Assembly (NCBI RefSeq): GCF_013170805.1
Contig: NZ_CP051293.1
Location: 6,950,001 to 7,014,000, forward strand
DNA length: 64,000 nt
DNA from: Mesorhizobium sp. NZP2077
GTDB taxonomy: Bacteria; Pseudomonadota; Alphaproteobacteria; Rhizobiales; Rhizobiaceae
Direction: 5' to 3'
Of this stretch, positions 4,663-64,000 are shown in pieces. The notes under the pieces were generated by a model. The model saw only the letters and a list, made by a program, of their open reading frames with translations, had not been told where the DNA came from and ran no database searches. Numbering within the stretch: position 1 is the stretch's first letter; every line of letters starts with the position of its first letter. The position numbers and the translations under genes were made by a program.

Positions 4663-4666
4663 TCGA

Positions 4667-5494: not shown

Positions 5495-5498
5495 TCTT

Positions 5499-6347
5499 TC
5501 ACTGCCAGTCAAATGATGTGGCGATTCTGGACATGACGAAAATCAGAAGCAAAGAAAGAACCAACATAGTGACCGAGATTGCCGCTCCACTGGGGTAATT
5601 GGCAACTTCGCCGAAGCGGCTGTAGATAAGATTTGATACAAATAGCACGCGCCCTCGGCCCAAGATCAACGGGATAACGAAGGCGCTCACGCCCATCGTC
5701 ATCGATACCAGAAACGCAGAGACAAGTCCGCGGATGCACAATGGCAACGTTATCGTGATATGAGTCTTAACTGCCGATGCGCCAAGGGACTGGGCCGCCT
5801 CTGCGAGGTGCGGATTGTAATTTTGAATGGCCCCGATCAAAACCAGGATTGACGTCGGTATTGCGTAGTGGAGCAACCCCGCGATGACCACGAAATAGAT
5901 GTACAGATAGCTATTAGTATTTATCCCAGCAGCGGACATGATCCACGTGAATATCCCGACTGACCCGAAGGTCAAATCAATTGAATAGACACGAACCAGG
6001 GAGCTCAGGAACATGAGGCCGATAAGGGTTGAAATCGCTGCCTTTCTGACTAGCAGCGATGCACGCCTGGCAATGCAATATGCAATCGGAAAGGCAATGA
6101 GAATGGCAATGGCTGCCGCGCAGAAGGCCAAGAGATAAGTCTGAATAAAGTATCGGGCATAGACCGGGAGAATGATCTCTGTATAGTTTTCGGTCGTAAA
6201 CGGAGCTCCCTCCTTCGAGCCAATCCGACCTGGCTCGAAGATACGAAAGCTCTGATCAAACACCGCCAACATCGGCAGCGCAAGGAATAGGACCATTGAT
6301 GCCACTGCGGGGAATAGCAGTAGCACTTGGGCTCTCGTACTTCTCAT
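5499..6347 (-). CDS. ABC transporter permease, PotB-like
   Basis: A permease of 282 residues starting at ATG 6347, which has GGAGA just upstream; the longer open frame to 6437 begins with GTG inside the preceding gene and is unlikely. Hydrophobic segments begin at VLLLFPAVASMVLFLALP, and the EAA loop reads EAAQSLGASAVKTHITITLP. It pairs with the PotC-like permease. In the inverted copy only about the first 60-70 codons of this gene remain, with frame disruptions. Confidence 0.88.
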   Translation of the reverse strand: MRSTRAQVLLLFPAVASMVLFLALPMLAVFDQSFRIFEPGRIGSKEGAPFTTENYTEIILPVYARYFIQTYLLAFCAAAIAILIAFPIAYCIARRASLLVRKAAISTLIGLMFLSSLVRVYSIDLTFGSVGIFTWIMSAAGINTNSYLYIYFVVIAGLLHYAIPTSILVLIGAIQNYNPHLAEAAQSLGASAVKTHITITLPLCIRGLVSAFLVSMTMGVSAFVIPLILGRGRVLFVSNLIYSRFGEVANYPSGAAISVTMLVLSLLLIFVMSRIATSFDWQ

Positions 6348-6394
6348 CCACTGTCTCCGGCTTTTGGTGTCATTTCGGGCAGCGCATTTTTCTT

Positions 6395-15799: not shown

Positions 15800-15852
15800 G
15801 CGTGACGGCGCTGTCATTCCAGCACGACAAAATAACAAAGGGGAACAATGAC

Positions 15853-16935: not shown

Positions 16936-16984
16936 GAGAAAAACGCGCTGTCCGAAATAAACCCAAAGCCGGACGAGAGCCCAA

Positions 16985-17350
16985 ATGCTACTGCTATTCC
17001 CCGCAGTGGGATCAATGCTCCTATTCCTTGCGCGGCCGATGTTGGCGGTGTTTGATGAGCTTTCGCATCTTCGAGCCAGGTCGGATTGGCTCGAAGGAGG
17101 GAGCTCCCCCTTACCAACGAAAACTACACCGAGGTCATTCTCCCGGTCTATGCGCGATACTTTATGAGATCCACGCAAGAACTCCGCTATCCAATCAATA
17201 GGACCATGCTGATCTATGCGTCAGGCCGGAAAACATAACGATCACGGCAGCTAGTGAAGTAGCTCAAGACTCAGAATGCAATGTCCTAGTGGGTGTCGTG
17301 CTCGACGTGGGACCGCTGGGCGCCGACATGCATGCGGTCGTCGAGCTAGG
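16985..17350 (+). pseudogene. Remnant of permease joined to ATPase C-terminus
   Basis: The first part corresponds to the start of the PotB-like permease (about the first 60 codons, frame-disrupted: the SFRIFEPGRIGSKEGAP segment is visible). At about 17165 it jumps to the end of the ATPase gene (EIHARTP… and …AECNVLVGVVLDV), then at about 17350 to the ribosome site of the enolase-superfamily gene. Compared with copy 1, a block from inside permease 1 to the ATPase tail has been removed, as well as the ATPase 3' end and intergenic region. Confidence 0.85.
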
Positions 17351-17375
17351 CTCAAAGACAAGGAGGTAACTTCTA

Positions 17376-18491
17376 ATGAAAATAACTCGCATATCAGTTT
17401 TTCAAATTGTGACGCCTTTTCCACATGGCTACAGCCTATCGCGTGGTCGGACATGGACATCTTTCGAAAGCACCATTGTAGCAATCGAGACTGACGCGGC
17501 GATCGTCGGATGGGGCGAAGTCGAAACGATGGGAGGGAATTATCTGCCGGCGTTCGCAAAGGGCGCCATAGCGGCCATTGCCGAATTAGCTCCTCACCTC
17601 ATTGGAGAAAATCCGCTCCAGACCGATCGAATCAACTATTTGATGGACCATTTCTTGTACGGCCATCCATACGGTAAATCGCCAATCGACATGGCTTGTT
17701 GGGATATTCTCGGCAAAGCAACGGGAATGCCGCTGTGCGATCTTCTCGGCGGAAGGTTCGAAGGGGGATTAGATCTTATGTGCGACCCCCAGGGGTCAGT
17801 TGAAGAGTTGTTGGCAGAGACCGCGGCCTTCCGTGAGAAGGGATACCGGCGTATGTCATTGAAATTGGGCGGAGATGTCGCGCACGATGTGTCAAAAATG
17901 CGGGCAATCTTTGAACAAGCCCAACCGGGTGAGGAATACTACGCCGACTGCAACCGCGGGTGGACACGGGATCAAGCCCTACGAGTAATGCGACAAATTC
18001 GCGATCTTGACGTCTATATAGAGCAGCCTTGTTATTCATACGAGGACTGCCTCGCGGTGAGATGTCGGACGGATCATCCAATGATCCTCGACGAAATCGT
18101 TGACTCGCCTGAGATGGTGATGCGGATTATCGCCGATAGTGCCGCAGACTTAATCAATATCAAGATCTCAAGAGTGGGTGGTCTGACAAAGGCCCGCCGC
18201 GCCCGCGATATGTGTGTGACGGCAGGGATTCCGATGACCATTCAAGATGTTGGGGGAACGGGGATAGTTCAGGGTGCGATTTTCGGTTTGGCTCAGTCCG
18301 TCCCGAAGGAGCTCCGCCACTCTGTATACAACCCGCTAGCACGTAGCCTTAACGACGCATTTACGGATGCACCCATCTTGATTCAGGGTGGCGTAGGAGT
18401 GGTGGAAGCCTCGGATCGACCCGGACTCGGTCAACAACCCTTACCGGGTAGCCTCGGCGATCCAATAGCTGTGTATGGCGGCAGGGGATAA
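17376..18491 (+). CDS. Mandelate racemase/muconate lactonizing enzyme family protein, second copy
   Basis: 371 residues, almost identical to 2298-3410, with all barrel residues kept (Lys in MSLKLGG, Asp in YADCNRGW, Glu in VYIEQP and ILDEIVD, Lys in INIKISRVGG). Differences cluster at the N-terminus and in the last third (YNPLARSLNDAFTD against YDPLSRSLSDGFTD). An AAGGAGGTAAC ribosome site lies upstream of the ATG. Because of the upstream deletion it now follows the binding protein by about 440 nt. It is likely still transcribed from element E. Confidence 0.85.
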   Translation: MKITRISVFQIVTPFPHGYSLSRGRTWTSFESTIVAIETDAAIVGWGEVETMGGNYLPAFAKGAIAAIAELAPHLIGENPLQTDRINYLMDHFLYGHPYGKSPIDMACWDILGKATGMPLCDLLGGRFEGGLDLMCDPQGSVEELLAETAAFREKGYRRMSLKLGGDVAHDVSKMRAIFEQAQPGEEYYADCNRGWTRDQALRVMRQIRDLDVYIEQPCYSYEDCLAVRCRTDHPMILDEIVDSPEMVMRIIADSAADLINIKISRVGGLTKARRARDMCVTAGIPMTIQDVGGTGIVQGAIFGLAQSVPKELRHSVYNPLARSLNDAFTDAPILIQGGVGVVEASDRPGLGQQPLPGSLGDPIAVYGGRG

Positions 18492-37376: not shown

Positions 37377-38052
37377 TTATCCTCATATCCTCACTACGGA
37401 TGGCTTTGGCCGCACAAGGAGTCTAATAGGTGCTTGTATTTGAAAAAAACGATTAATTGTTATCCAATGGCATCTACTTTTGGAATGCAAGGCGAACCTG
37501 AGTGGGGCTGCGCTGTAGCCGTCTCAGGCTCCGTGCGCAGCCAGAGGGGACGCATGCCATTCCCGCGACTTTTTTAGGTGCCAATCTTCGAGCACGTGCC
37601 TGGCCGCTGCAGCAAAGGGGCGGAGAGCGGTGACAGCGTACCGGCGCGAAGGAGTCTTTTCGCATCTTTTCCAAGCTGGCTTCATAAGGCGATGCCTTGG
37701 CCTCGTCTATCGATCGATCACATCCGAGTTTGTTTGTACTGTTGTTCATTGTGAGGACGCCTTGCGCGTATTCATCATCGGAATAGCTAACGAGTTTGCG
37801 CGCCGGGCCGCACATCGGTCTATGCAAATGCGGCAAGCGAGCAGCATCAAATAGTCAGCCGAATATTCGAATAAGCGATCAAAACCCAGTATTTTTTATC
37901 GCTTTTCGCGGTGTCCCGTCCCGCCTAACATGACCGGCGCGAAAATGCTGGATGTACGGCACGTCCCTCGCGGCGAGCTAACTTATACGAGCACAGTAGC
38001 AGTCGCCCGCTTAGGTTTTCCGACGCGCAATACAAGGAACAAAGGAGGAATA
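37377..38052. other. Intergenic region between divergent aminotransferase and serine hydrolase
   Basis: No gene is supported. It contains a long-range dyad GGCTGCGC … GCGCAGCC (37506-37542, 21-nt loop) and a short palindrome CGAATATTCG near 37860. Promoters for both flanking genes must lie here, but I cannot place them. The longer frame of the hydrolase that starts at 37930 lacks a ribosome site. Confidence 0.45.
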
Positions 38053-39267
38053 ATGAATATGAGATCTACGGCCGCGCCCGAGGAAACCGAAACTCTGCCG
38101 CCGGGTGGCGCGGCGTATTTGACGTGGTCGCCGGAACAGATGGCCATTGGCTTCCGCTCACTGGAGAAGATCAATCCAGTCCATGTTGTGCGTCACGGCA
38201 CGCATGTCCGTCTTTTGCCTAAGGCCGACCAGCAAATCTCGCCAAGCTGGAATTGGAAAGGCCAGGAGATGACCGTGGATCGATATATGGACACGTACAG
38301 GAGCTCGGGCAGTATTGTTCTCAAAGATGGTAAGGTAGTCTTGGAGCGCTATGGGCTCGGTCGCACGGAAAAAGATGCCTGGCTCCTAACGTCCGCGACG
38401 AAATGCTATACAGCGACTCTTGTCGGTGCCGCGATCAAAGATGGCTACATCAAAAGCGTCGATGCGCTCGTTACTGACTACATTCCCGCGCTCAAAGGCA
38501 GCGCCTACGATAACGTGACGATCCGCCACCTGTTGACATTTACGTCGGGCGTCAGGTGGATCGAAGACGTCGAGGGAGATTACACCCATCCGGATGCCAA
38601 CTTTTTGTCCTATTGGGCACCAGTGCTCGACACTGATGTGGATTGCATCGTCTCTTACATGCGCCGTCTGCCTCGAGCCAATCCGCCGGGCACTATGTAC
38701 AACTACACCGATGGCGACGCCCACTTGGCCGGGATTGTTATCTCGAGCGCAGTCGGAAAGCCGCTATCGGAGTACCTCTCCGAAAAAATCTGGCAACCTT
38801 ATGGGATGGAAGCGGACGCATACTGGCAGTTGGATGCGAGCGGCAACGAGCAAGCAGGAGGGTTTCTCTCGGTAACCCTGCGCGACCAAGTACGCTTCGG
38901 CCAGTTCATCCTAGAGGGCGGCAAAGCCGGCGCCGTCCAGGTCGTGCCGCCAGACTTCCTGGCCGCAGCAACGAGCGTCCAAGTCAATTTCGTCCCCGGT
39001 GCAAGTTCGGACGGTCCGCTGGGCAAGGGTTTTATTAACTGGAGTATCTACAAGGACTATTATGTAGGTTCAGGCGGTGCTGGGCAGAGGATCTTCGTCT
39101 ATCCGAAGGACAAGGTGGTGATCGCCATCAACTCCGCATGGCCTTATGTCAACCGCTTTGCGGCAGCGCCTGACCAAAAAACTGCAGTACTTCCTGTTTC
39201 CGATCATGAGCCGGCTTTGAATGCCTTTGCCGAAGCCCTGCGCGCTGCGGCAGTGTCGCAGCGCTGA
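38053..39267 (+). CDS. Beta-lactamase-fold serine hydrolase (6-aminohexanoate-dimer hydrolase/NylB-like)
   Basis: About 404 residues. The serine-lysine motif SATK (LLTSATKCYTATLVGAAIKD) gives the nucleophile; HLLTFTSGVRW and the tyrosine motif MYNYTDGDAHLAG follow, with the third element near GSGGAGQRIFVYPKD. This pattern is that of NylB-type amidases and related esterases rather than true beta-lactamases. No signal peptide, so probably cytoplasmic. ATG 38053 is chosen because AAAGGAGGAATA lies directly before it. Confidence 0.83.
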   Translation: MNMRSTAAPEETETLPPGGAAYLTWSPEQMAIGFRSLEKINPVHVVRHGTHVRLLPKADQQISPSWNWKGQEMTVDRYMDTYRSSGSIVLKDGKVVLERYGLGRTEKDAWLLTSATKCYTATLVGAAIKDGYIKSVDALVTDYIPALKGSAYDNVTIRHLLTFTSGVRWIEDVEGDYTHPDANFLSYWAPVLDTDVDCIVSYMRRLPRANPPGTMYNYTDGDAHLAGIVISSAVGKPLSEYLSEKIWQPYGMEADAYWQLDASGNEQAGGFLSVTLRDQVRFGQFILEGGKAGAVQVVPPDFLAAATSVQVNFVPGASSDGPLGKGFINWSIYKDYYVGSGGAGQRIFVYPKDKVVIAINSAWPYVNRFAAAPDQKTAVLPVSDHEPALNAFAEALRAAAVSQR

Positions 39268-42145: not shown

Positions 42146-42160
42146 TATATGCCGCATATA
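42146..42160. promoter_or_regulatory. Probable GntR operator
   Basis: TATATGC-C-GCATATA is a perfect 15-bp palindrome, of the size and odd-centre symmetry typical of FCD-type GntR operators. It covers the first possible ATG of hyuA (42149), which supports the downstream start at 42185 and makes this a good repressor site. Confidence 0.55.
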
Positions 42161-42184
42161 CGAAATGGAAAGGGCGACCAGCAA

Positions 42185-44239
42185 ATGCCTCTCAAGGTCG
42201 GGGTCGATGTCGGAGGAACGTTCACCGACTTCTTTGTCATTGACGAAGAAGCGGGGCGCACGATCCGCTACAAGCGACCGTCAACGCCTGCGCAGCCGCA
42301 GGAAGCGATTCTCAATGGTCTTAAGGAGCTCCTGGCCCTACACGACTTGCCGTTCTCGGCTGTCGAGTCGCTTTTCCATGGAACGACGGTAGGAACAAAC
42401 GCGCTGATCCAACGCCGCATCGGTAAAGTTGCGCTGGTCACGAGCGAGGGATTTCGCGATCTTATCGAGATCGGCCGGCAGACGCGGCCAAAGGTCTATG
42501 ATATCCACCAGGACTTCCCCGCGCCGCTCGTTCCGCGCGATTGCCGCTTCGAAGTGCCCGCGCGCGTCCGGGCCAACGGCACCGTCGTCACACCGCTCGA
42601 TGAGGATCGTCTTCTTGAGCTGGTTCCGGTCCTCATCGACAGGAAGGTCGACTGCGTCGTCGTCGCTTTTCTCCACTCTTTTGCCTATCCCGAACACGAG
42701 CGCCGTGCCGTCGATGTGCTGCGTGCGGCGCTGCCCGCTGGCGTTCATGTTATCGCGTCGGCGTCGGTCTACCCAGAGTTCCGCGAGTATGAACGCTTCA
42801 ATACCGCGGTGCTGAACGGTGCGCTTCTCACGGTGATGGATCGCTACATTGGCGAACTCATCTCCGGGGTGAAGGCGCTCGGAACAGTGGCGCGACCGCT
42901 GATCTCGCAGAGCAGCGGTGGGCTAATGTCGGCACATATGGCGAAGGAACTTCCTATCCGTGCATCGCTGTCCGGTCCAGCGGCAGGCGTGTCGGCAGTC
43001 GTCCATTGGGCGCGCGAAATGGGTTATCGGGACGTGATCACGCTCGACATTGGCGGCACGAGTTCGGATGTCGCGATGATCCGCGAATATGAGGCTACAG
43101 AAGTCTCATTGCAGGATGTGGGTGGCTTCCCAGTGCGCATGCCGGCGGTGGATGTGACGGCGGTCGGTGCTGGTGGCGGTACGATTGCATGGATCGACAA
43201 AGACGGCCTTCTGAAGGTGGGTCCGCACAGTGCCGGTGCGTATCCGGGGCCTGCCTGCTACGATCTTGGCGGTGTCGCCGCCACGACTACGGATGCGAAC
43301 GTGCTTCTGGGGCGCCTCAGCAACGAGGCTCTTCTTGGCGGGCGCATGCCCATCAAGCCGGAAATGGCACGCCAGGCGGTCGCTCGGCTTGCCCAAGAGC
43401 TTGGACTAGAGACCATGGATACCGCGTTGGGCATTCTGAAGCTGGCCGGTGGCACCATGGTCAAGGCGTTGCGCAAGGTGTCGATTGAGCGTGGCCACGA
43501 CCCTTCGGGGTTCGCTCTGTTTGCCTTTGGCGGGGCAGGGCCATTGTTCGCGACCGATGTTGCCAGGGAAATCGGCATATCGACTGTTGTGGTACCCCTC
43601 AATCCGGGTCTGATGTGCGCCGAGGGACTACACTATTGTGCCCTTACAAATGATTTCGTCGGCACCTATCTGGGCGAGCTCGCCGAGTCTGCCGGACAGG
43701 CGATCGCAGGCCTGCGCGACGCGCTGGCAACCGAGGCTGCCGCGTGGTTCTCCAGCGAAGGGGTTCCGGCAGACCAGTGGAGCTATGATTGGCGCGTTGA
43801 ACTGCGTTACCGCGGCCAAAATTTCGAGCTTTCGTTGCCGCTTTCCGAGGACAAGCTCGCGAGCAACGCGATTAATGAACTGCGCCAAGGCTTCCACGTC
43901 GCGCACGAACGTTCCTATGGATTCTCGATGCCAGGCGAAGTGGTCGAGTTGGTCAGCGTAAAGCTGAAGGCACGGCAGAAGATTGAAACCGCGCGCCCGA
44001 CCGATTTGCCGGAGAGGCAGTTCGGCCGGCCGATTGGCGTCCGCAAAGTCGTCTTTGATCAGATTGAACCTGTCGATGCAGCGATTTACGAGCGGGCTGA
44101 CCTTGCGAAGGGGCAGCGCATTCCTGGGCCGGCGATCATCGATCAGCAGGATGCAACCACCCTCATCTACCCCGGCGACGAGGCGTTCGTCGACCGGTGG
44201 GGCAACATTATCATCAAACTTCGTCGCGAGGTCGCCTGA
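42185..44239 (+). CDS. hyuA: Hydantoinase/5-oxoprolinase subunit A (HyuA-like)
   Basis: About 684 residues. The N-terminal ATP-binding motif VGVDVGGTFTDFFV, the middle phosphate loop DIGGTSSDVAMI, GPACYDLGG and the FAFGGAGPLFA segment match the A subunit of ATP-dependent hydantoinases (including N-methylhydantoin amidohydrolase) and acetophenone-carboxylase relatives. ATG 42185 has AAAGGG upstream and begins the conserved domain; the ATG at 42149 lies inside a palindromic operator. The stop overlaps the hyuB start (TGATG). Substrate assignment to hydantoins is family-level. Confidence 0.88.
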   Translation: MPLKVGVDVGGTFTDFFVIDEEAGRTIRYKRPSTPAQPQEAILNGLKELLALHDLPFSAVESLFHGTTVGTNALIQRRIGKVALVTSEGFRDLIEIGRQTRPKVYDIHQDFPAPLVPRDCRFEVPARVRANGTVVTPLDEDRLLELVPVLIDRKVDCVVVAFLHSFAYPEHERRAVDVLRAALPAGVHVIASASVYPEFREYERFNTAVLNGALLTVMDRYIGELISGVKALGTVARPLISQSSGGLMSAHMAKELPIRASLSGPAAGVSAVVHWAREMGYRDVITLDIGGTSSDVAMIREYEATEVSLQDVGGFPVRMPAVDVTAVGAGGGTIAWIDKDGLLKVGPHSAGAYPGPACYDLGGVAATTTDANVLLGRLSNEALLGGRMPIKPEMARQAVARLAQELGLETMDTALGILKLAGGTMVKALRKVSIERGHDPSGFALFAFGGAGPLFATDVAREIGISTVVVPLNPGLMCAEGLHYCALTNDFVGTYLGELAESAGQAIAGLRDALATEAAAWFSSEGVPADQWSYDWRVELRYRGQNFELSLPLSEDKLASNAINELRQGFHVAHERSYGFSMPGEVVELVSVKLKARQKIETARPTDLPERQFGRPIGVRKVVFDQIEPVDAAIYERADLAKGQRIPGPAIIDQQDATTLIYPGDEAFVDRWGNIIIKLRREVA

Positions 44240-45894
44240 TGTCCCTCAACCCAATCGAAATTGAGATGATGCGCAATGCTTTAACCAGCATTTGCGACGA
44301 GATGTATGTCGCGATCATGCGGAGCGCCTATTCCACCAACATCAAGGAGCGGCGGGACCATAGTACAGCGATTTTCGACTTGAAAGGGCGTACCATCGTG
44401 CAGGGGGAGAGCCTACCCCTGCTGCTCGCCTCGATGCTGGGTCTCGTCGAGGTCGTCCTCGAAAAATATGGCGCCGACGCGATCCAGCCTGGCGACATGT
44501 TCTTGTCAAACGATCCCTATGTAGGACGCGGGTCGCATCTCCCCGACGTTGCCGCAGTCATGCCCATATTCACCAACGGACGACTTGTCGCTTTCGTCGC
44601 TGACATCGCCCATCACGCCGATATCGGCGGGATGGTTCCCGGTAGTATGGCCGGAGGGATGACCGAGATCTATCAGGAAGGATTACGCATTCCACCGCTG
44701 CGCGTGATGCGGGACTTCAAGATAGACAACAACGTGATGGACCTTGTGCTGCTGAACGTGCGGGTCCCACATGAGCGGCGCGGCGATTACAATGCCCAGT
44801 TCGCGGCGAACCTGCTCGCGGCACGTCGGATGGAAGAATTTTTCCGCCGCTGGACGGTCGACCAATTCAACGAAGGGGCTGAAGCGATCCTGAGCGCGGT
44901 CGCGCGGCGGATCCGTTCCGGCATTAGCGAACTGCCTGACGGGAAATACGCCTTCGAGGATCACCTCGACGACGATGGAGTGGACACCAACCACATCCCA
45001 ATCCGAGTCGAGATCGAAATCAAAGGCGATGAGATTTCCTTGGATTTTGGAGGGTCATCGCCGCAGGTAACGGGTAACATCAACGTTACGATGAGCGGTC
45101 TCCAGGCGAGCGTGCTTTATGCTCTGAAGGTTCTCGTCGACCACGACGGCCCGACTAATAGTGGCATGATGAACCCTGTGGCGATCATAGCGCCCGAGGG
45201 CTCAATCGTGAACGCCAGGTTTCCCGCTGCGACAGCGGCGCGTGCCCAAACTTGTCAGCGTATCATTGACGTGGTTCTTGGTGCGCTTGCTCAGGCTGCG
45301 CCGCACGCGGTTATCGCAGCGTCTAATGGAAGCAACATGAGTTGCTCGTTCTCTGGAAGGGCGGTCGACGGCACTGACTACGTCTACATGGAGACAATCG
45401 GTGGCGGTGCCGGTGGGCGTTCCTACAAGGACGGTACGGACGGGGTACAGGTGCACGTTACCAATACCTCTAATCTTCCGATCGAGGCCCTCGAGCGCGA
45501 GTATCCCCTTCTCATCGAGCGATACGAATTCATCGAAAACTCTGGCGGTACCGGCAAGTGGCGCGGCGGACTCGGCCTGCGGCGGGTCTATCGTCCGATC
45601 GATCATACCTGCCGCTTCAGTGGGCAGGGCGAGCGCTTCATCTACCAGCCTTGGGGGCTGTTCGGCGGCACGCCCGGTCGAGCGGGACGGCTCAGCCTCG
45701 TACACGATGATGGGCAAATCACATCGGTGCGCGGGAAGATTACCAGTCTACGGATACCCGAAACTGCGCGCCTGGAGGTGGAGACGCCCGGGGCGGGTGG
45801 TTACGGCAACCCTTCTCAACGAGATCCGGCACTCAAGGAAGAGGACATCAGATTCGGCAAGGTAAGGGCCGAGGCCGCCGTGGATGTCGCATAG
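44239..45894 (+). CDS. hyuB: Hydantoinase/5-oxoprolinase subunit B (HyuB-like)
   Basis: 551 residues starting at the ATG overlapping the hyuA stop. It has the HyuB pattern: RSAYSTNIKERRDHSTAIFD, PGDMFLSNDPYVGRGSHLPD, DIAHHADIGGMVPGSMAGG, YKDGTDGVQVHVTNTSNLPI and GKWRGGLGLRRVY. It forms the catalytic heteromer with HyuA for ATP-driven ring opening or related carboxylation. The following amine-oxidase genes are frameshifted while this pair is intact. Confidence 0.9.
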   Translation: MSLNPIEIEMMRNALTSICDEMYVAIMRSAYSTNIKERRDHSTAIFDLKGRTIVQGESLPLLLASMLGLVEVVLEKYGADAIQPGDMFLSNDPYVGRGSHLPDVAAVMPIFTNGRLVAFVADIAHHADIGGMVPGSMAGGMTEIYQEGLRIPPLRVMRDFKIDNNVMDLVLLNVRVPHERRGDYNAQFAANLLAARRMEEFFRRWTVDQFNEGAEAILSAVARRIRSGISELPDGKYAFEDHLDDDGVDTNHIPIRVEIEIKGDEISLDFGGSSPQVTGNINVTMSGLQASVLYALKVLVDHDGPTNSGMMNPVAIIAPEGSIVNARFPAATAARAQTCQRIIDVVLGALAQAAPHAVIAASNGSNMSCSFSGRAVDGTDYVYMETIGGGAGGRSYKDGTDGVQVHVTNTSNLPIEALEREYPLLIERYEFIENSGGTGKWRGGLGLRRVYRPIDHTCRFSGQGERFIYQPWGLFGGTPGRAGRLSLVHDDGQITSVRGKITSLRIPETARLEVETPGAGGYGNPSQRDPALKEEDIRFGKVRAEAAVDVA

Positions 45895-54983: not shown

Positions 54984-56060
54984 ATGAGCGAACGTCTGCG
55001 CTTATTGGATACGACGCTTCGGGACGGTAGCTACGTCATCAACTTCCAGTTCACCGCGCGCGATACGGCCCTCGTCGCGGGACAGCTGGAAGCTGCTGGC
55101 TTCGAGCTAATCGAGATCGGGCATGGGATTGGCCTTGGAGCGTCGCAGCGAAATTGCCGCCGTGCTGCGGAAACGGACGAGGCCTATTTGGCCGCCGCCG
55201 CAGACACGTTGAAGCGCGCCATGTGGGGGATGTTCTGCATCCCTGGGGTCGCGACCCTGCAGCAAATCGATATGGCGGCGGATTACGGCATGAAGTTCAT
55301 CCGTGTAGGAACCGACGTCGCCGACGTTCCTGATTCCAAGGAGTTTATCGGGCGGGCGAAGAAACATGGCATGTTCGTCTGCGCCAACTACATGAAATCA
55401 TACGTCGCCGCGCCCGAGGACTTCGCGCGCAATGCGCTGCTATCGAAGCAATATGGTGCAGATGTCGTCTACATCGTAGACTCCGCCGGTGGGATGTTAA
55501 CGCGTGATATGGAAAGCTATTTCCGCGCGGTGCGCGACGTTTGTGACGTTAAGATAGGCTTCCATGGTCACAATAATCTTGGTCTTGGGGTAGCCAACGC
55601 GGTCCGTGCGGCGGAGCTAGGAGCGGCGATCGTCGATACATCGCTGCAAGGCATGGGCCGCAGCGCGGGAAATACGCCCACCGAGTTGTTCATCGCCGTC
55701 ATGGAGCGACTCGGGGTGGCCATGGGCTTCGATCCGTTGCGCGTCATGGACATCGGCGAGAAGTACATCAAGCCGCTCATTCGCCGCGATGGGCTAAACT
55801 CGCTCGATATCGTGGCTGGATATGCACAGTTTCACTCGAGCTATATGGATGTGATCAGGGAGTTTTCGAGCAAGTTCGGAGTCGATCCGCGCAAACTCAT
55901 CATCGCCTTATGCGAAAGAGACAAGGTCAATGCCCCGCGGGCCATGGTCGAAGACTTGGCGCAAGCGCTTAGCGCGGAGCCGGAAGACGCTTTCTCGGCC
56001 AGATTCCTCCTCGACCGATATTACGGGGCCGAACAGAAGCCGGAGCCGACGAGATTCTGA
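54984..56060 (+). CDS. DRE-TIM metallolyase, 4-hydroxy-2-oxovalerate aldolase/HMGL-like
   Basis: About 358 residues. The N-terminal signature LLDTTLRDGSY supplies the Arg-Asp pair, and GFHGHNNLGLGVAN the metal-binding His-x-His. RVGTDVADV and VYIVDSAGGMLTRDM fit the aldolase branch (4-hydroxy-2-oxovalerate aldolase-like) better than isopropylmalate synthases. It makes or splits a C-C bond next to a 2-oxo acid. Start ATG 54984, in preference to the GTG at 54957. Its stop overlaps the start of the AMP ligase (TGATG). Related proteins occur in some surface-polysaccharide loci, where their role is little known. Confidence 0.82.
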   Translation: MSERLRLLDTTLRDGSYVINFQFTARDTALVAGQLEAAGFELIEIGHGIGLGASQRNCRRAAETDEAYLAAAADTLKRAMWGMFCIPGVATLQQIDMAADYGMKFIRVGTDVADVPDSKEFIGRAKKHGMFVCANYMKSYVAAPEDFARNALLSKQYGADVVYIVDSAGGMLTRDMESYFRAVRDVCDVKIGFHGHNNLGLGVANAVRAAELGAAIVDTSLQGMGRSAGNTPTELFIAVMERLGVAMGFDPLRVMDIGEKYIKPLIRRDGLNSLDIVAGYAQFHSSYMDVIREFSSKFGVDPRKLIIALCERDKVNAPRAMVEDLAQALSAEPEDAFSARFLLDRYYGAEQKPEPTRF

Positions 56061-57649
56061 TGCAGACATGGTCCACACGGCTGGCTCGCATTTTCGGCGA
56101 TAACGCCGAACGCGCGTACATGATCGACTCCGCGACCGGCGAGGTGACGACGTATGCAGACCTGGCCCGCCGATCGGCTTCTCTGGTCAAGCAACTCGAG
56201 CGTCACGGGATAAAGCGGGGGGACCGGGTCGGAGTTCTGCTGCCCAACGGTGCGGCTTTCGCCACGGTCTATTTTGCATGTCTTTTTGGTGGCCTGACAG
56301 CAGTTCCGGTAAACAATGCCTTGTCTCACAAAGAACGCGCATTCGTCCTGAAGAATTCTCGTTTGTCGGCACTCCTGACGGGCGGGATGGGCGATGGGAT
56401 TGCTTCTGCGGATACCGATCACTATCAGGAGACTTCACCGTTTCGCCCGCTAATACTGACAATTTGCAGTGACGGCTCGATGGCAGGCCGCTCACTGCAG
56501 GTTGCAAAGCAAGATGAAATGGATCGCTACATGGCCACGATCGACGATGATCGTCTCTGGTCGATTCATTTTACGTCCGGAACGACAGGCCTTCCGAAGG
56601 GCGTGGCCCATCGAGTCGGCGCCTTGCTTGGAAACGCTCACTCGTTCAACAGCACCTTTGGGATCGGCCGCGACAGCCGATTTGTGCATGTTATGCCGAT
56701 GCCTTACATGGCCGGATTTCTGAACACGCTATTGGGCGCATTTACCACAGAAGCATCGATTATTCTTGCGCCGCAGTTTGGGCCCCGAAGCGCGCTGCGC
56801 TTCTGGGAATCGGTAAAGGCGTATGGTGGAGATACAATCTGGATGTCGCCGACGATGCTTGCCGCATTAACGCGGATAGATCGTGGTGAAGTTGGGATCG
56901 AGCTCTGTCGCTCGAAGGCGATTCGGATCTTTAGTGCGACGGCGCCATTGTCCACCAAGGTGCGGCGCGAGTTCGAAACCAAATACGGAGTCGAAGTGAC
57001 TGAGAGCTATGGTCTTTCGGAATTGCTGCTGATTGCGGCAAATGCCGGCCCTGCCGGGCGAAAGGACTTGTCAGTGGGGCCTTGCCTGCCGGAAGTCCGC
57101 ATCACTATTCGCAATGGAGCGGGAGCGGAGGTGGCAGCCGGCAGCGATGGCGCCATTTTCGTCCACACCCCGTTCGCGTCCGCCGGCTACATCGATTTCG
57201 ACACGGGTGCCCCCGCGGCGCCGGCAAGATTCTGGTTCGACACCGGAGACGTCGGCCACTTGGACGATGACGGATATCTCTACGTCACGGGGCGCGTAAA
57301 GGATCTGATCATCCGAGGGGGCTTCAATATCAGTCCGCGGCAGATCGAAGAGGTTCTGCTCCAGCACCCAGCCGTCAACGACGCCGCAGTAGTCGGCATT
57401 CCTCACGATTTCTATGGCGAGCAGGTGGTCGCGGCGTTCATACCTAATGTTGGCGTCAAACTAGAGGATGTCCTGGCAAGCTTGCGCGAGCAGTGCCTTT
57501 CGGCTCTGGGGCCTTCGACGGTGCCGGACCGGTTCGTTGCCTTTGATGTGTTTCCGGTGACGAATTTTGGGAAAATTCGGAAGCTGGCGATAAGAGAGGT
57601 GCTCATTGAAAGCGACCAAAGCGGCAGCGTGACGGGGGCTGGCTCGTGA
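56060..57649 (+). CDS. AMP-dependent acyl/aryl-CoA or carrier-protein ligase
   Basis: 529 residues, ANL superfamily. Core motifs in order: IHFTSGTTGLPKGVAHR (phosphate loop), VTESYGLSELLL, YLYVTGRVKDLIIRGGFNIS (hinge with Asp), and near the C-terminus NFGKIRKLAIRE with the adenylation Lys. Complete and apparently active. As the cluster encodes a carrier-protein domain (58189-59124), it may load that carrier rather than CoA (inference). It is translationally coupled on both sides: TGATG with the aldolase and GTGA with the next gene. Confidence 0.87.
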   Translation: MQTWSTRLARIFGDNAERAYMIDSATGEVTTYADLARRSASLVKQLERHGIKRGDRVGVLLPNGAAFATVYFACLFGGLTAVPVNNALSHKERAFVLKNSRLSALLTGGMGDGIASADTDHYQETSPFRPLILTICSDGSMAGRSLQVAKQDEMDRYMATIDDDRLWSIHFTSGTTGLPKGVAHRVGALLGNAHSFNSTFGIGRDSRFVHVMPMPYMAGFLNTLLGAFTTEASIILAPQFGPRSALRFWESVKAYGGDTIWMSPTMLAALTRIDRGEVGIELCRSKAIRIFSATAPLSTKVRREFETKYGVEVTESYGLSELLLIAANAGPAGRKDLSVGPCLPEVRITIRNGAGAEVAAGSDGAIFVHTPFASAGYIDFDTGAPAAPARFWFDTGDVGHLDDDGYLYVTGRVKDLIIRGGFNISPRQIEEVLLQHPAVNDAAVVGIPHDFYGEQVVAAFIPNVGVKLEDVLASLREQCLSALGPSTVPDRFVAFDVFPVTNFGKIRKLAIREVLIESDQSGSVTGAGS

Positions 57650-58180
57650 GCGATCATGTCATTCGCCTGGAACTGCGCGGCTGTGACGTTTGTGCAAGCA
57701 ACGATCTGGCGTCGCTTTCGGCGCAATCAGCTTTCACTCGTACCCATACCGGATCGGTCCAGTTCGACGTGGCGAGCGCGAGTTGCAAGGGTTGTGGCTT
57801 TGTATTTGTCTCTCCTGTTTTCTCCGACGAAGATCTTAATGACTATTATTCCAACTCAAATATTCCCTTCACCGGAGGTGATCGGCGCAAATCTTTCCAC
57901 CCGGTTCCACCTCGGGGTAGCGGCAAAATTCTTCGGCAAATTCCGGGTTCCAGATCATGTTGTCGCCGCTTCCCGCCCGAAAAGGCGGGCGATTTTGGAC
58001 AGCCATCATGGTCTGACGCCAGATGCCGCAAACAGAAGATTGTTTTGGCTGCCGGACCTTTCATTTTCGCGAGAACCCATGCGCGCAATTCTTGTGCAGA
58101 TCGAGCGATGGACGAACATGCATTTTGAGGGAGCGATGCTTACATCGTCGATCCCTTTTATCTCGGTAGTAGCGGGGAGT
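57646..58180 (+). pseudogene. C-methyltransferase-like protein, zinc-binding N-terminus only
   Basis: From GTG 57646, overlapping the ligase stop, the protein begins CDVCASNDLASLSA then CKGCGFVFVSPVFSDEDLND and YYSNSNIPF, the two-knuckle zinc domain that starts many SAM-dependent C-methyltransferases of sugar and polysaccharide clusters. After about 80 residues homology is lost, and none of the three frames continues with a SAM-binding GxGxG motif; the region 57890-58180 looks like foreign or scrambled DNA. The gene is therefore truncated, while its neighbours are intact. Confidence 0.65.
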
Positions 58181-58188
58181 TCAGAAAA

Positions 58189-59124
58189 ATGCGACAGTTT
58201 GTTGATCTTTCATACGTATTGCACGACGGTATGACCACCTATCCCGTGCCCTGGTCGCCGCCGTTTGAGATGACACAGTTGGGTAGGCACGCGATCGAAG
58301 GCCGAGAGTCGCGGAAGATCGTCATCGGAACGCATTGCGGTACGCATGTCGATGCGCCGCGACATTTCATTCCCGGCGGAACGACGATCGATCAGCTGGC
58401 GCTCGAACCATTCGTCGGTCCTGCAACGGTGGTGGATTTTACGGACGCCAAGCCCTTGCAGGAAATAGGTGTTTCTGACTTCGAAAGACGTATCGGCGGC
58501 CGGCACATTGATCGATTGGTCATGAGGTTCGACTGGTCTGATCACTGGGGAACGTTGAAGTTTTATTCGGAGCAGCCCTTCATCTCGGAAGATGCCGCTC
58601 GTTGGCTGGTGAGGCGCAGCGTACGGCTGCTCGGTATGGACACTCCGCAAGCCGATAGCCCGAAGAACGGGCGCGGTTCGGAACGTGACTCTCCTGTGCA
58701 CAAGATTCTTCTCAGGGCGGGCGTGATCAAGCTCGAATACATGACCAACCTGAGGGCGCTGGGAACGGATGAATTCGAACTGATTGCGTTGCCGCTGAAC
58801 ATACGAGAAGGAGACGGTTCGCCCGTCCGCTGCATCGGAATTGTCGAGGACAAAGGTTTAAGTGAGATTGTAATGACGCATGAAGAGCTGGTTCGTGAGT
58901 TTTTTGCGCGGCACGCCAAGTCGCCCCTTCCAACTGGAAAAGACGCGTTGACCGTGCAGTATCTTGATCATGGTTTGATCGATTCCTTCGGCATCGTCAC
59001 GATGATTGCCGATTTTGAAAGTGCACTCGGTGTTACCTTCTCGGCGGAAGATATGCAGTCGTACGAATTCCAGACGATCGGGGGACTCATTGGAATTCTG
59101 GACCGATTAGCCAAGCCTGGCTGA
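58189..59124 (+). CDS. Cyclase-family (KynB-like) hydrolase fused to an acyl carrier protein domain
   Basis: 311 residues with two domains. Residues 1-222 form the metal-dependent cyclase/arylformamidase fold: DLSYVLHDGMTTYP and the full HCGTHVDAPRH signature (residues 49-59, pattern HxGTHxDxPxH). Residues 229-308 form an acyl carrier protein: LVREFFARH, then the phosphopantetheine site DHGLIDSFGIVTMI with Ser266, and FSAEDMQSYEFQTIGGLIGI, closest in style to D-alanyl carrier/DltC-like carriers. Such a fusion suggests that the cyclase/hydrolase acts on a substrate tethered to its own carrier arm. It lies between an AMP ligase and an AAC(3)-type acyltransferase, which could load and unload the carrier. 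The start ATG at 58189 follows GGGGAG. Confidence 0.85.
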   Translation: MRQFVDLSYVLHDGMTTYPVPWSPPFEMTQLGRHAIEGRESRKIVIGTHCGTHVDAPRHFIPGGTTIDQLALEPFVGPATVVDFTDAKPLQEIGVSDFERRIGGRHIDRLVMRFDWSDHWGTLKFYSEQPFISEDAARWLVRRSVRLLGMDTPQADSPKNGRGSERDSPVHKILLRAGVIKLEYMTNLRALGTDEFELIALPLNIREGDGSPVRCIGIVEDKGLSEIVMTHEELVREFFARHAKSPLPTGKDALTVQYLDHGLIDSFGIVTMIADFESALGVTFSAEDMQSYEFQTIGGLIGILDRLAKPG

Positions 59125-59231
59125 TGCGGGTCGTTCCGAAGGAGAGTGTTTTTCTGTTGGAATCCGCCACGGAACAGATCAACCGAAGGCTGCGATGGAC
59201 GTCTTTTCCCGAATTGTGTCGGAGTCAGTAG
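59124..59231 (+). other. Short overlapping ORF between cyclase-ACP and AAC(3) genes
   Basis: An ATG overlapping the cyclase-ACP stop (TGATG) opens 35 codons beginning MRVVPKES. The same opening (TGATG, then a frame starting MLIVPKD) follows the AAC(3) gene at 60058, with GTTCCGAAGGA shared. Both may be starts of a lost gene or a repeated coupling element. No function is assigned. Confidence 0.3.
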
Positions 59232-59233
59232 CG

Positions 59234-60058
59234 ATGATGGATTACCACTACACCCGCGAAGACCTTTTGAAGGCGATCGAAGCGATCGGCATCCGTCCAG
59301 GCGACGTTGTCTCATTGCACGTAAGTCTCGGTCGGCTCGGATTGCCGGAGGCGGTCGAGCGCAACTATCGAGCACTGTCGAACTTCGTGATAGATGCCTT
59401 CCTTGAGGTGCTAGGGACGAACGGAACACTTCTTGTTCCGACCTTCACGGCCTATTCTTTTGAGCTCGGCCAGGTGTATGATGTCGAGTTAACGCCCTCA
59501 GTGACTGGCGAATTCCCGGAGGTGTTCCGAAGCCGGACGAATGCCATACGGTCGCGCGATCCGTTGCTGTCGTGGGCAGCGATAGGACCTAAAGCTCAAG
59601 TCATATTACGAAACATTTCCAATCGGTGCTTCGGCGAGGGCAGTGTTTTTGATAATCTTGTCAAGGCTAATGGGGTGATATGCACATTAGGCCTTGGGAT
59701 GTGGTGGGCCACGTTCTGCCACTATATCGAAAAGATGGCTGACGTGCCGTTTCGCCGTGACAAGCTGTTTCGATGCGCTATTCGCGAACACGGACAGCAG
59801 CGTGAAGAGGAGTGGATATATTTCGCCTTCCCGCGCGTCCCCAATTGCAAACCGAACGGCATGGCGCTGGAGAAGAAGGCGACTGAACGATCTCTTATTC
59901 GGGTTGCTCCGATTGGGCGTGGCGAAATTCACGGCCTCAGCGCGAGGGAATATCTCGCTTTTGGACTGGAGCAACTTCGTGAAAATCCCTGGCTAACCGC
60001 CAATGGCCCCCCTGCCCCGCCGGAGGTCATCTTTAAAAATGAACCGTGGGCGCTGTGA
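59234..60058 (+). CDS. AAC(3)-family N-acyltransferase
   Basis: About 274 residues of the aminoglycoside 3-N-acetyltransferase fold: DVVSLHVSLGRLG, LGTNGTLLVPTFTAYSFE, FPEVFRSRTNAIRSRDPLLS and a C-terminal SAREYLAFGLEQLR. In family members the segment after RS reads xHPxxS; here it is RDPLLS, so that His is missing. Homologues in biosynthetic loci acylate amino sugars or similar amines, so resistance is not implied. The ATG at 59234 has GGAG 9 nt upstream; 59195 is an alternative. It is the last gene of the cluster and a candidate for transferring the carrier-bound acyl group to an amine. Confidence 0.8.
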   Translation: MMDYHYTREDLLKAIEAIGIRPGDVVSLHVSLGRLGLPEAVERNYRALSNFVIDAFLEVLGTNGTLLVPTFTAYSFELGQVYDVELTPSVTGEFPEVFRSRTNAIRSRDPLLSWAAIGPKAQVILRNISNRCFGEGSVFDNLVKANGVICTLGLGMWWATFCHYIEKMADVPFRRDKLFRCAIREHGQQREEEWIYFAFPRVPNCKPNGMALEKKATERSLIRVAPIGRGEIHGLSAREYLAFGLEQLRENPWLTANGPPAPPEVIFKNEPWAL

Positions 60059-61440: not shown

Positions 61441-61990
61441 TTTCCGATTCGGAGGATTCACTTTGTGCCCTGCCGCCACGTAACCGACCCATGCGCCGCA
61501 CTCTGGAGCGGCGCATCCGCGCCTCAAGCTGAACGCATGGCGGCGCTTACAATTTTCGTGAAGCACCTCACGACCTTAGCCCTTCGGAACATCTGCAAGG
61601 CTGATCTGGATCCAATTAGTGCACCCACAGCCCGGAACACGCAAGTTCAGAAGCTTACCACCACCAATGTAGCTTGACACGCCGTTGCCTAGCGCGGATG
61701 ACGTTGCGGTTCTTTATCTTTGTTGCGCTCGCATGACGATTGCGCATCACAGGGTTTAAATTAAATTAACTTCGCCAATTGCAGCGAGATGCTAGAGTTC
61801 TGACGATGTTGGCCTGCCGACGACGGCCGCGGAGCCGTAGCCTCACAGCCGGAAGCTTTGGTGCGCCAGGGACAACATCCAACGCAAATGGCTACTGAGC
61901 AGAGACTATAGAATGCCCGCGGATGACTGCTGTCTCTGAACTTCGAGGGCTCTCAACCAGAGTGTCCAACCAGCTTTTTTGTTCACCAGG
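61441..61990. other. Upstream region of the luxR-type gene
   Basis: No gene recognised in 61441-61680. The AT-rich stretch around 61755-61790 (GGTTTAAATTAAATTAACTT) is the likely promoter area. I did not find a convincing 18-20 bp lux-box dyad. Confidence 0.4.
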
Positions 61991-62752
61991 ATGAATTTCC
62001 CTGAGGCATCCAGGGAAGCGTTTGCGGTCGAGTTCGCCCGTTTTCTCGACCAGACCGATGGTACCGGAAAACCCGAGCAGTTGTTCAACTTGTTATCTGC
62101 CTTTGCTCTGAATTTTGATTGTCCGTGGGTCGCCTATAGCTCCCTTGCACCAGACCAAAAAGGCTTAAAGCCGGCGCGAGGCGATCCGGCGGTCATGCTG
62201 AACTATCCTGATGAATGGCAGGAGCGCTATTTCGAAATGGGTTATGACAGGATGGACCCCACCATCAAGAGAAGTCGGAGGCGAGCAGAAGCCATTCGGT
62301 GGAGCGAGGTGTACAATGACGAAAGCACGACTGAAGACGAACGGCGCGTTTTCGACGAGGCTGCCAAGTTTGGCTTAAGATCAGGCATTAGCGTCCCGTT
62401 GCACGGCCCCGAAGGCAGCTTTGCGATCATGAACTTTGCTCACCCCTGGGACGGTGAATTCCAAAAGACAACGATCACGTACTTGCAACTTGCGGCGTTA
62501 CATTTCCATCTGAGAGTTGCGGTGTTCGCTAATTCGAGCCACATTGAGGAGAAATCTAACCTTTCTCCAAGAGAAAAAGAGTGCATCCTATGGACGGCGA
62601 GAGGGAAATCCTCGTGGGAGATAGGAAAGATTATAGGGATATCTGTAAATACCGTTAATTTCCATATAAAAAACGTAATGAAAAAAATGGACACTAACAG
62701 CAGAACAACCGCGGCAATAAAAGCTCTAAAGTTACAGATAATCAAATTGTAA
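61991..62752 (+). CDS. LuxR-family quorum-sensing regulator (solo)
   Basis: About 253 residues. The N-terminal autoinducer-binding domain shows the conserved Trp/Tyr/Asp cluster (CPWVAYSS, WQERYFEMGYDRMDPTI, AIRWSEV, GLRSGISVPLHG), and the C-terminal HTH reads LSPREKECILWTARGKSSWE, IGKIIGISVNTVNFHIKNVM. All AHL-receptor landmarks are present, so it probably binds an acyl-homoserine lactone or similar signal. No luxI-type synthase is in the window. The ATG at 61991 is chosen over a TTG four codons upstream; neither has a strong ribosome site. The gene is more AT-rich at its 3' end than its surroundings. Confidence 0.9.
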   Translation: MNFPEASREAFAVEFARFLDQTDGTGKPEQLFNLLSAFALNFDCPWVAYSSLAPDQKGLKPARGDPAVMLNYPDEWQERYFEMGYDRMDPTIKRSRRRAEAIRWSEVYNDESTTEDERRVFDEAAKFGLRSGISVPLHGPEGSFAIMNFAHPWDGEFQKTTITYLQLAALHFHLRVAVFANSSHIEEKSNLSPREKECILWTARGKSSWEIGKIIGISVNTVNFHIKNVMKKMDTNSRTTAAIKALKLQIIKL

Positions 62753-63450: not shown

Positions 63451-64000
63451 ATGTGGCAGGACTACGAGGCAGACCTCGAGCCTCGCTCGTAGATTTGCAC
63501 AAACGAGTTCATCGGGGAGCGTATCGCCTGCAACCGTCGCGCCGGACATATGCATCGACAGTGAGGTGGTGGAAGAGCGCGGTGAACCGATCCTTCTTCC
63601 TCAGCCTTGCGCCGCCACCGGTTGCCCGGCTTTGTTCGTCGGCTTCCCAGCTACTATGCCAGAGTCAGACTTCTCCGTGTCGTGCATCAGCGGCTACGGC
63701 TCCTCGCCTTCCCGCTGCGGACCATGTCCTCCAAAAAGGCCATGGTCGACCCGGAGATCTCCCGGTTCCCGTACAAAGAGCGTCCATGCGGTCTAAAAAA
63801 AGACCGCGCCGGATTGGTGAGGCACTCGCATAGCGCACCTCCCATATTGCCTTCCGCTATGAGGACAGCGTCGGCATCCGAGATAAGATCCCTTTCGCGG
63901 CTCAATGGCTGGCCTGCATGCTCCCCTACCGACGCTTCGCCGACATCCTCGCGGATGCCTGCGCACGGCTCGGGGCCGACGTGGATCGCCACTCCTTCAT
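63451..64000. other. Unassigned right end of the window
   Basis: Open frames exist on both strands, including a plus-strand frame from about 63834 that runs off the end (FAAQWLACMLPYRRFADILA), but I recognise no family and see no start. It may be intron- or IS-derived repeat sequence. Confidence 0.3.

What the first reader, a model, noticed from the sequence alone, without database searches (positions are those of the whole stretch)
54984..60058. Unrecognised five-gene pathway: aldolase, AMP ligase, methyltransferase relic, cyclase-ACP, AAC(3) acyltransferase
The genes are on one strand with stop/start overlaps between the first three, so they form one transcription unit. A DRE-TIM aldolase-like enzyme, an adenylating ligase, a carrier protein fused to a cyclase/hydrolase, and an AAC(3)-type N-acyltransferase make a complete logic: build an acid, activate it, load it on a carrier, modify it and transfer it to an amine. 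The zinc-domain methyltransferase start is of the kind found in sugar/polysaccharide loci, so the acceptor may be an amino sugar in a surface polysaccharide or signal molecule. I do not know a described pathway with this gene set.
Basis: partly seen in the sequence, partly recalled or inferred. Interest (0 to 1): 0.82.

Follow-up and report, generated by a model that had tools for sequence, protein, structure and literature searches.

The report
Partial sugar-acylation operon near nodulation genes
The five genes are a shortened copy, in a nodule bacterium, of a gene set found together in many unrelated microbes, which most likely builds a small acid and attaches it to an amino sugar of the cell surface; no described pathway with this set turned up in the papers searched.

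Summary
In detail: aldolase (A), AMP ligase (B), methyltransferase relic (C), cyclase fused to a carrier protein (D-P) and AAC(3)-type acyltransferase (E) lie on one strand. They are not a local assembly. Of the 80 best D relatives kept from one scan of species genomes, 59 are close; B occurs in 55, P 49, A 41, E 38 of 59, and 29 of 59 carry A, B, D, P and E together, by record titles from proteobacteria to archaea. Of those 29, 25 also have a VOC (glyoxalase-fold) and a DUF4910 gene; 26 of 59 lie beside pseudaminic acid genes. Likely function: make a short hydroxy-acyl group, load it on P, and let E put it on an amino sugar of a surface glycan. All 41 aligned A proteins have a reciprocal His/Tyr exchange at two active-site positions of the aldolase DmpG. 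The window's copy is incomplete: C is broken, VOC and DUF4910 are missing from the operon, and no pseudaminic/sialic acid synthase was found in the genome. It lies between nodC and nifH. A, B, D, P and E keep the checked motifs, so a reduced function is possible. Product, acceptor and activity are untested.

The parts
54984..56060 (+). A: aldolase-like DRE-TIM protein (358 aa) with DmpG-type communication domain; metal-ligand positions kept, His21->Tyr and Tyr291->His relative to DmpG
56060..57649 (+). B: AMP-forming acyl ligase (529 aa), conserved ligase motifs kept
57646..57879 (+). C relic, first part: start of a SAM methyltransferase, 44.6% identical to the full-length one in L024
57917..58129 (+). 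C relic, weak trace of the methyltransferase tail in another frame (core apparently deleted)
   Evidence: 8.3 bits, E 0.1, versus at most 3.3 bits in 200 codon shuffles
58189..58863 (+). D: cyclase/kynurenine-formamidase-like hydrolase domain with HxGTHxDxPxH motif
58864..59124 (+). P: acyl carrier domain fused to D; serine codon 266 of the fused gene (58984-58986) in the DSF motif
59195..60058 (+). E: AAC(3)/FrbF-type N-acyltransferase (287 aa; start may be the ATG at 59237), invariant His and Glu kept

Best explanation
The locus is a partial, probably horizontally acquired copy of a conserved operon (A-B-[C]-VOC-D-P-[M2]-E-DUF4910) that makes a short, probably hydroxylated acyl group and attaches it to an amino sugar of a surface glycan. 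Inferred order: A joins pyruvate to an aldehyde to give a 4-hydroxy-2-oxo acid, using a His/Tyr pair exchanged relative to DmpG; VOC and D rearrange, trim or ring-open it; B adenylates the acid and loads carrier P; E transfers the acyl group to an amine. In genomes with pseudaminic acid genes the amine is most likely on that sugar or a precursor; because a PseH-like acetyltransferase domain is usually present as well, E must use another amine, or one freed first (the peptidase-like DUF4910 protein is a candidate for that). Shown here: gene identity, conserved co-occurrence, residue conservation, linkage to pse genes, loss of parts in the window. Inferred: every chemical step, the product and the acceptor. 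In this strain the pathway cannot run as it does elsewhere; a reduced version may.
For: Co-occurrence: of 59 close loci D 59, B 55, P 49, VOC 42, A 41, DUF4910 40, E 38; 29 have A, B, D, P and E; 0 of the 21 more distant D loci have any other member or a pse gene. Neighbours are PseC, PseG or PseI relatives in 26 of 59 (over the NCBIfam cut-offs in L063). Residues, window included: carrier Ser 51 of 51 aligned, E His and Glu 41 of 41, A metal-ligand positions 41 of 41, A Tyr/His exchange 41 of 41. Closest locus L024 (Methylocystis) has C and M2 methyltransferases, VOC and DUF4910. Purifying selection between window and L024 (A: 5% of second versus 52% of third codon positions differ).
Against: No enzyme was assayed and no glycan structure is tied to the set. 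33 of 59 loci show no pse gene within the fetched stretch, including the two closest (L023, L024), so the acceptor may differ. My first idea that E replaces PseH failed on re-check: a PseH-like domain is fused to PseG in 4 of 4 proteins tested (36-64 bits, cut-off 93.1) and the same part of the PseG profile is matched in 14 of 26 pse loci. A Wzt-like hit (6 of 59) and an aminotransferase (5 of 59) are no commoner than in the 21 controls (3 and 2). The window genome lacks any PseI/NeuB relative and any VOC relative. Profiles were iterated on the same loci, and the split into 59 close and 21 distant loci was made.
Confidence: 0.6

Rival explanations
1. In this strain the locus is an inert leftover: a passenger in the symbiosis region that has lost VOC, DUF4910 and the methyltransferase core (and M2, if its ancestor had it) and does nothing. 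(This is about the local copy and can hold together with the best explanation of the family.)
For: C is broken; VOC, M2 and DUF4910 are not found in the operon and no VOC relative in the genome; no nonulosonate synthase; IS110-type transposase genes in the window; in the genus (146 genomes) a close D is found only in the window's own genome, the next best match being 37% identical.
Against: A, B, D, P and E are open and deviate at 0 of 79, 2 of 44, 3 of 47, 0 of 2 and 1 of 19 conserved columns (ranks 33 of 41, 37 of 56, 20 of 62, 42 of 51 and 13 of 41, 1 = most deviant); E is the least typical. The D-P fusion is shared by 8 other proteins at 75-88% identity among the best 120 listed of 1140, two from named Bradyrhizobium strains, which suggests long-term use of the fused form.
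Confidence: 0.4
2. The fused D-P lineage is a stable, simplified working version (A, B, D-P, E) that makes a simpler acyl group without VOC and the methyltransferases, perhaps for a rhizobial surface polysaccharide or signal.
For: Four of the 29 loci with A, B, D, P and E also lack a detected VOC gene (L034, L050, L053, L055). None of 8 other fused-D proteins shares a contig length with any listed VOC or C relative, against 8 of the 30 nearest unfused ones (Fisher p 0.16). The locus lies between nodC (6.86 Mb) and nifH (7.06 Mb).
Against: The contig-length test is weak, indirect and not significant. I could not read the DNA around any other fused copy: 0 of 265 genomes of a Bradyrhizobium-like genus carry a close D at E<=1e-50, and plasmids and viral contigs gave none.
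Confidence: 0.35
3. A catabolic cluster: the aldolase and cyclase/formamidase degrade an aromatic or cyclic compound, as in meta-cleavage or isatin/tryptophan breakdown.
For: A passes the 4-hydroxy-2-oxovalerate aldolase cut-off by 3 bits, and D's solved relatives include kynurenine formamidases and isatin hydrolases.
Against: A carrier protein and an N-acyltransferase recur beside them (P 49 and E 38 of 59), with pseudaminic and DUF4910 genes; A has exchanged residues at two DmpG active-site positions. I did not search the loci for an acylating aldehyde dehydrogenase.
Confidence: 0.05
4. E is an aminoglycoside resistance gene and the rest is chance neighbourhood.
For: PF02522 match, 118 bits.
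Against: NCBIfam AAC(3) models fall far short of their cut-offs (87 against 270 bits for the best of five); E occurs with A, B, D and P in 29 of 59 loci.
Confidence: 0.02

Closest known systems
DmpG/BphI-type 4-hydroxy-2-oxovalerate aldolase (PDB 1nvm)
   Same: Fold family, communication domain, RD motif and HxH positions; 183 bits to 1nvm.
   Different: DmpG His21 is Tyr and Tyr291 is His in all 41 aligned A proteins (numbering from the alignment); the gene context is biosynthetic, with ligase, carrier and acyltransferase.
Pseudaminic acid pathway (PseB, C, H, G, I, F)
   Same: 26 of 59 loci carry PseC, PseG or PseI relatives beside the module; a PseH-like domain is usually there too, fused to PseG.
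   Different: The A-B-VOC-D-P-E-DUF4910 genes are additional to that pathway. The window's genome has no PseI/NeuB relative.
DUF4910 (CA_C2195) gene neighbourhood of Das et al. 2014, PMC4000134 (outline, passages and section 10 read)
   Same: DUF4910 with glyoxalase, acyl carrier protein, aminosugar N-acetyltransferase and N-acetylneuraminate synthase; proposed modified surface carbohydrate.
   Different: Section 10 and its Table 2 name no aldolase and no cyclase; the Clostridium table lists an ATP-grasp ligase, not an AMP ligase; the acyl-building half of the set is not described there. Its supplementary tables were not read.
Aeromonas polar flagella glycosylation islands, group II (PMC7874193, passages read)
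   Same: pse genes together with an acyl carrier protein, a reductase and an AMP-dependent synthetase.
   Different: The passages name luxC, luxE and a 3-oxoacyl-ACP reductase; the word aldolase does not occur in the main text.
FrbF and AAC(3) N-acetyltransferases (PDB 3sma and others)
   Same: Antibiotic_NAT fold family; invariant His and Glu, whose catalytic role is recalled.
   Different: Below all AAC(3) cut-offs, and accompanied by a carrier protein.
Sinorhizobium K-antigens with N-(3-hydroxybutyryl) pseudaminic acid (PMC9037385 and PMC3788101, passages read)
   Same: Shows that rhizobia put short hydroxy-acyl groups on pseudaminic acid of surface polysaccharides.
   Different: No relative of A (E<=1e-70) or of the Rhizobium altiplani D (E<=1e-30) was found in the plasmid collection; whether the plasmids of those strains are held was not checked.

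Membership tests
4-hydroxy-2-oxovalerate aldolase (DmpG/BphI) | NCBIfam TIGR03217 score at or above 286 bits | tested here: met
   289.3 bits, only just above the cut-off
4-hydroxy-2-oxovalerate aldolase (DmpG/BphI) | Active-site His21 and Tyr291 (DmpG numbering; role of His21 recalled; role of BphI Tyr290, taken as the matching residue, from passages of PMC3962088) | tested here: not met
   Tyr and His respectively in 41 of 41 aligned A proteins
4-hydroxy-2-oxovalerate aldolase (DmpG/BphI) | Linked acylating aldehyde dehydrogenase partner | not tested
   not searched for in the loci
AAC(3) aminoglycoside resistance enzymes | NCBIfam AAC(3) cut-offs | tested here: not met
   87.1 against 270 bits, and lower for four other models
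AAC(3)/FrbF (PF02522) fold family | Pfam score and conserved His and Glu | tested here: met
   117.8 against 25 bits; His and Glu 41 of 41
The conserved module A-B-VOC-D-P-E-DUF4910 | A, B, D, P and E together | tested here: met
   window layout A B C D P E
The conserved module A-B-VOC-D-P-E-DUF4910 | VOC and DUF4910 genes in the operon | tested here: not met
   no match to the L024 VOC or DUF4910 protein in the window and 80 kb on either side (tblastn E<=1e-3); no VOC relative in the genome; the one DUF4910 gene lies at 6.016 Mb in another locus
Pseudaminic acid locus | PseI/NeuB synthase | tested here: not met
   0 matches in the window's genome
Acyl carrier protein | Serine for phosphopantetheine | tested here: met
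   51 of 51 aligned carrier domains, the window's included
Acyl transfer from P to an amino sugar by E | Enzyme activity | not testable with these tools
   needs biochemistry

The most novel reading that the evidence does not exclude
The module is an undescribed, cross-domain route that builds a short hydroxy-acyl group with an aldolase whose His/Tyr active-site pair is exchanged relative to DmpG, and uses an AAC(3)-fold acyltransferase with a carrier protein to put it on pseudaminic acid or related amino sugars; a simplified form with a fused cyclase-carrier protein has been taken into rhizobial symbiosis regions, where it alters a glycan met by the legume.
Probability: 0.2. Interest if true: 0.77.

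Novelty: new variant of a known kind. Interest (0 to 1): 0.55.

Why it matters
If true, a gene set spread over many bacterial phyla and apparently some archaea explains how unusual N-acyl groups reach pseudaminic acid and related sugars of cell surfaces. It gives testable functions to several protein families that are now named after distant relatives (aldolase, arylformamidase, aminoglycoside acetyltransferase, VOC, DUF4910), and it offers an aldolase family with exchanged active-site positions for mechanistic work. The window's copy itself matters less: it shows that pieces of the module occur among rhizobial symbiosis genes.

Tried and rejected
Withdrawn on re-check: that E takes the place of PseH. 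A single-query search had found PseH in 3 of 26 pse loci, but the PseG proteins carry a PseH-like acetyltransferase domain at their end in 4 of 4 tested, and that part of the PseG profile is matched in 14 of 26 pse loci. I lowered two odds for this (best explanation 0.62 to 0.60, novel case 0.22 to 0.20, whose wording changed).

Plasmid collection by DNA with the whole operon: no match. By protein: D gave 273 records, all under 60% identity, the Rhizobium altiplani D none at E<=1e-30, A none at E<=1e-70. Viral contigs: no relative. A nod-box-like pattern gave 2 matches in the window, none near the operon, 1.7 expected. Sigma-70 promoter and terminator scans found fewer sites than the shuffles (2 against 2.6 and 2 against 6.5). 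VOC sequence search of solved structures: nothing meaningful, so a fold was predicted from one VOC protein with 27 aligned (pLDDT 95.9); it matched glyoxalase-fold proteins, human GLOD4 with the highest TM (0.70) of the 50 rows shown; this fixes the fold, not the reaction. Search for other copies of D: order 3 of 397 genomes at E<=1e-50 including the window's (the two others 46-53% identical), family 1 of 394 at E<=1e-45 (its own), a genus of 7-11 Mb genomes that I take for Bradyrhizobium by size only 0 of 265, phylum 4 of 398 at E<=1e-40 including its own. One further genome search only served to find a centre for this. Paper searches: 10 answered and one error; none listed a description of the same set, though most of the listed papers were seen as listing only and most subscription papers are not held. 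I considered the pyroglutamate-like acyl groups of some O-antigens (recalled) as the product and dropped the idea for lack of evidence. That the fused lineage always lacks VOC is not claimed (one search is weak).
Full report
What is in the window. Five features lie on the + strand between 54984 and 60058. A is a DRE-TIM aldolase-like protein, B an AMP-forming ligase, C a relic, D a cyclase-family domain fused to an acyl carrier domain P, and E an Antibiotic_NAT protein. A and B share one base and B and C overlap by four bases; D and E follow after 60 and 70 bases.

Where it lies. The window is G000:C1:6950001-7014000 of a 7.69 Mb genome. A nodC gene over its cut-off lies at 6.861 Mb and nifH at 7.064 Mb, so the window lies between nodulation and nitrogen-fixation genes and the host is presumably a nodulating bacterium. 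Its name was not given; Mesorhizobium is my guess. IS110-type transposase genes, a TraR-like LuxR gene and the end of a group II intron lie in the same window.

Relatives. One scan of a collection of 84,980 species genomes with a D alignment gave 407 relatives, of which the best 80 were kept. In one search the first 59 (L023-L081) looked different from the last 21 (L082-L102), and I split them there after seeing this. With profiles built iteratively on these loci, the 59 contain D 59, B 55, P 49, VOC 42, A 41, DUF4910 40, E 38; 29 of 59 have A, B, D, P and E, and 25 of those 29 also have VOC and DUF4910. None of the 21 distant loci has any other member. Several of the 59 are short contigs, so absences there mean little. 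By record titles the loci come from proteobacteria, Verrucomicrobia, Bacteroidales, a cyanobacterium, Lentisphaerae, Elusimicrobia, Myxococcota and two archaeal bins; many are metagenome bins and single titles may be wrong. The usual order is A-B-VOC-D-P-E-DUF4910. Two small loci from the order search (L103, L104) show B, VOC, D, P and E again.

Neighbours. In 26 of 59 loci there are PseC, PseG or PseI relatives, in 0 of 21 controls; in Vibrio coralliilyticus (L063) these score over the NCBIfam cut-offs. I first read the module's E as a stand-in for PseH, because a single query found PseH in 3 of 26. On re-check this fell: the PseG proteins of L063, L046, L050 and L062 (4 of 4 tested) carry an acetyltransferase domain whose best or second-best NCBIfam match is PseH (36-64 bits, under the cut-off of 93.1), and the same part of the PseG profile is matched in 14 of 26 pse loci. 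So the module adds something to the ordinary pathway rather than replacing its acetyl step. The closest locus, L024 of Methylocystis sp. B8, has an asparagine-synthase-like gene, DUF4910, A, B, C, VOC, D, P, a second methyltransferase M2, E and, further on, a Wzt-type transporter gene. A capsule gene lies beside the L046 copy. Wzt-like hits (6 of 59 against 3 of 21 controls) and a class I/II aminotransferase (5 of 59 against 2 of 21) are not enriched. The case for a surface glycan therefore rests on the pse genes and DUF4910.

Residues. Aligned to DmpG (1nvm), A keeps the positions of Arg17, Asp18 and the HxH metal ligands (roles recalled), but His21 is Tyr and Tyr291 is His (positions counted on the alignment). 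Both exchanges are present in 41 of 41 aligned A proteins, the window's included; one of 42 found was too partial to align. Tyr290 of BphI, which I take as the matching residue, controls stereochemistry (PMC3962088, passages read); the role of His21 as base is recalled. The carrier serine is present in 51 of 51 aligned, the His and Glu of E in 41 of 41, the His, His, Asp and His of the D motif in 83 of 83. The VOC protein is predicted as a glyoxalase-type fold with high confidence.

What the window has lost. C keeps about 80 codons of its start; a weak trace of its tail stands in another frame and scores above 200 codon shuffles (8.3 against at most 3.3 bits), so its core seems to be deleted. 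VOC and DUF4910 of L024 have no match over 224 kb around the operon; M2 has only a 29% match to a distant stretch and the asparagine-synthase-like protein two matches at 25-26% elsewhere. M2 is present in 13 of 59 relatives, so its absence is less telling. The genome has no VOC relative, no PseI/NeuB relative, and its one DUF4910 gene lies at 6.016 Mb beside what by eye are an NDP-sugar epimerase and an RmlC-like gene. A, B, D, P and E deviate at 0 of 79, 2 of 44, 3 of 47, 0 of 2 and 1 of 19 conserved columns; E, at rank 13 of 41, is the least typical. Third codon positions differ from L024 far more than second ones. So the open genes bear the mark of selection, while the pathway as seen elsewhere is incomplete here.

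The fused cyclase-carrier gene occurs in nine of the 120 best proteins listed of 1140: the window's, two from named Bradyrhizobium strains and six from a source marked lgn without names. The other listed relatives have no carrier domain. None of the eight others shares a contig length with a listed VOC or C relative, against 8 of the nearest 30 unfused proteins (p 0.16); this hints at, but does not show, a lineage that works without those genes. Four of the 29 loci with A, B, D, P and E lack a detected VOC gene too.

Mechanism. The most likely reading is: A makes a 4-hydroxy-2-oxo acid, VOC and D convert it, B loads it on P, and E transfers it to an amino group of a sugar; DUF4910, which its describers thought might transacylate or deacylate a sugar amide (PMC4000134, section 10), could free that amine. 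Each chemical step is inferred. Rhizobia are known to carry N-(3-hydroxybutyryl) groups on pseudaminic acid of K-antigens (PMC9037385 and PMC3788101, passages read), so the type of product is plausible for the host group; no plasmid record matched A or the Rhizobium altiplani D at the limits used.

What is known. Das et al. 2014 (PMC4000134) described DUF4910 neighbourhoods with glyoxalase, carrier protein, N-acetyltransferase and sialate synthase and proposed a modified surface carbohydrate; section 10 names neither an aldolase nor a cyclase gene, and its supplements were not read. Aeromonas islands join pse genes with a carrier protein and an AMP synthetase (PMC7874193, passages). No paper with the whole set was listed, in a library that lacks most subscription journals.

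Verdict. A real and widespread gene set with good evidence for co-function and without a description that I could find; the window holds an incomplete copy of it among symbiosis genes. Interest 0.55 for the family-level finding; the local copy alone would rate lower.

Noticed in passing
61979-62752: LuxR-type gene with autoinducer-binding domain, TraR-like (104 bits against a cut-off of 250), close to the operon and the intron end; its partner synthase was not looked for.
   Followed up: no
63794-64000: Group II intron end (Rfam RF02005, 148 bits) running off the window's edge.
   Followed up: no
2298-7480 and 15802-18491: By eye, two look-alike copies in opposite orientation of a substrate-binding protein and of an enzyme beginning MKITRISVFQIV, one pair flanking ABC transporter genes; a duplicated uptake cluster.
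   Followed up: no
42149-45894: Hydantoinase/oxoprolinase A and B pair, with a beta-lactamase-fold protein at 37930-39267 and amidase and M24 peptidase genes further off.
   Followed up: partly
L060:679-2634, L040:6401-8287, L041:6454: A proteins of 628-651 aa carry an extra C-terminal region of about 280 residues; in L060, the only one scanned, it has no Pfam match.
   Followed up: partly
L034:7247-8437 and four other loci: A class I/II aminotransferase inside or beside the module in 5 of 59 loci, but also in 2 of 21 controls. Two of the five (L034, L053) lack a detected VOC gene.
   Followed up: partly
L063:4384-5883 and others: PseG fused to a PseH-like acetyltransferase domain, as reported for Aeromonas caviae in PMC7874193; seen in 4 of 4 proteins tested.
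   Followed up: partly
L023: The record is titled Streptomyces sp. AcH 505, but G+C is 0.61 and A and D are 82-84% identical to the window's; possibly a foreign contig in that assembly.
   Followed up: partly
L113 (G000:C1 6.016 Mb): The genome's only DUF4910 gene lies beside what by eye are an NDP-sugar epimerase and an RmlC-like gene; another sugar locus.
   Followed up: partly
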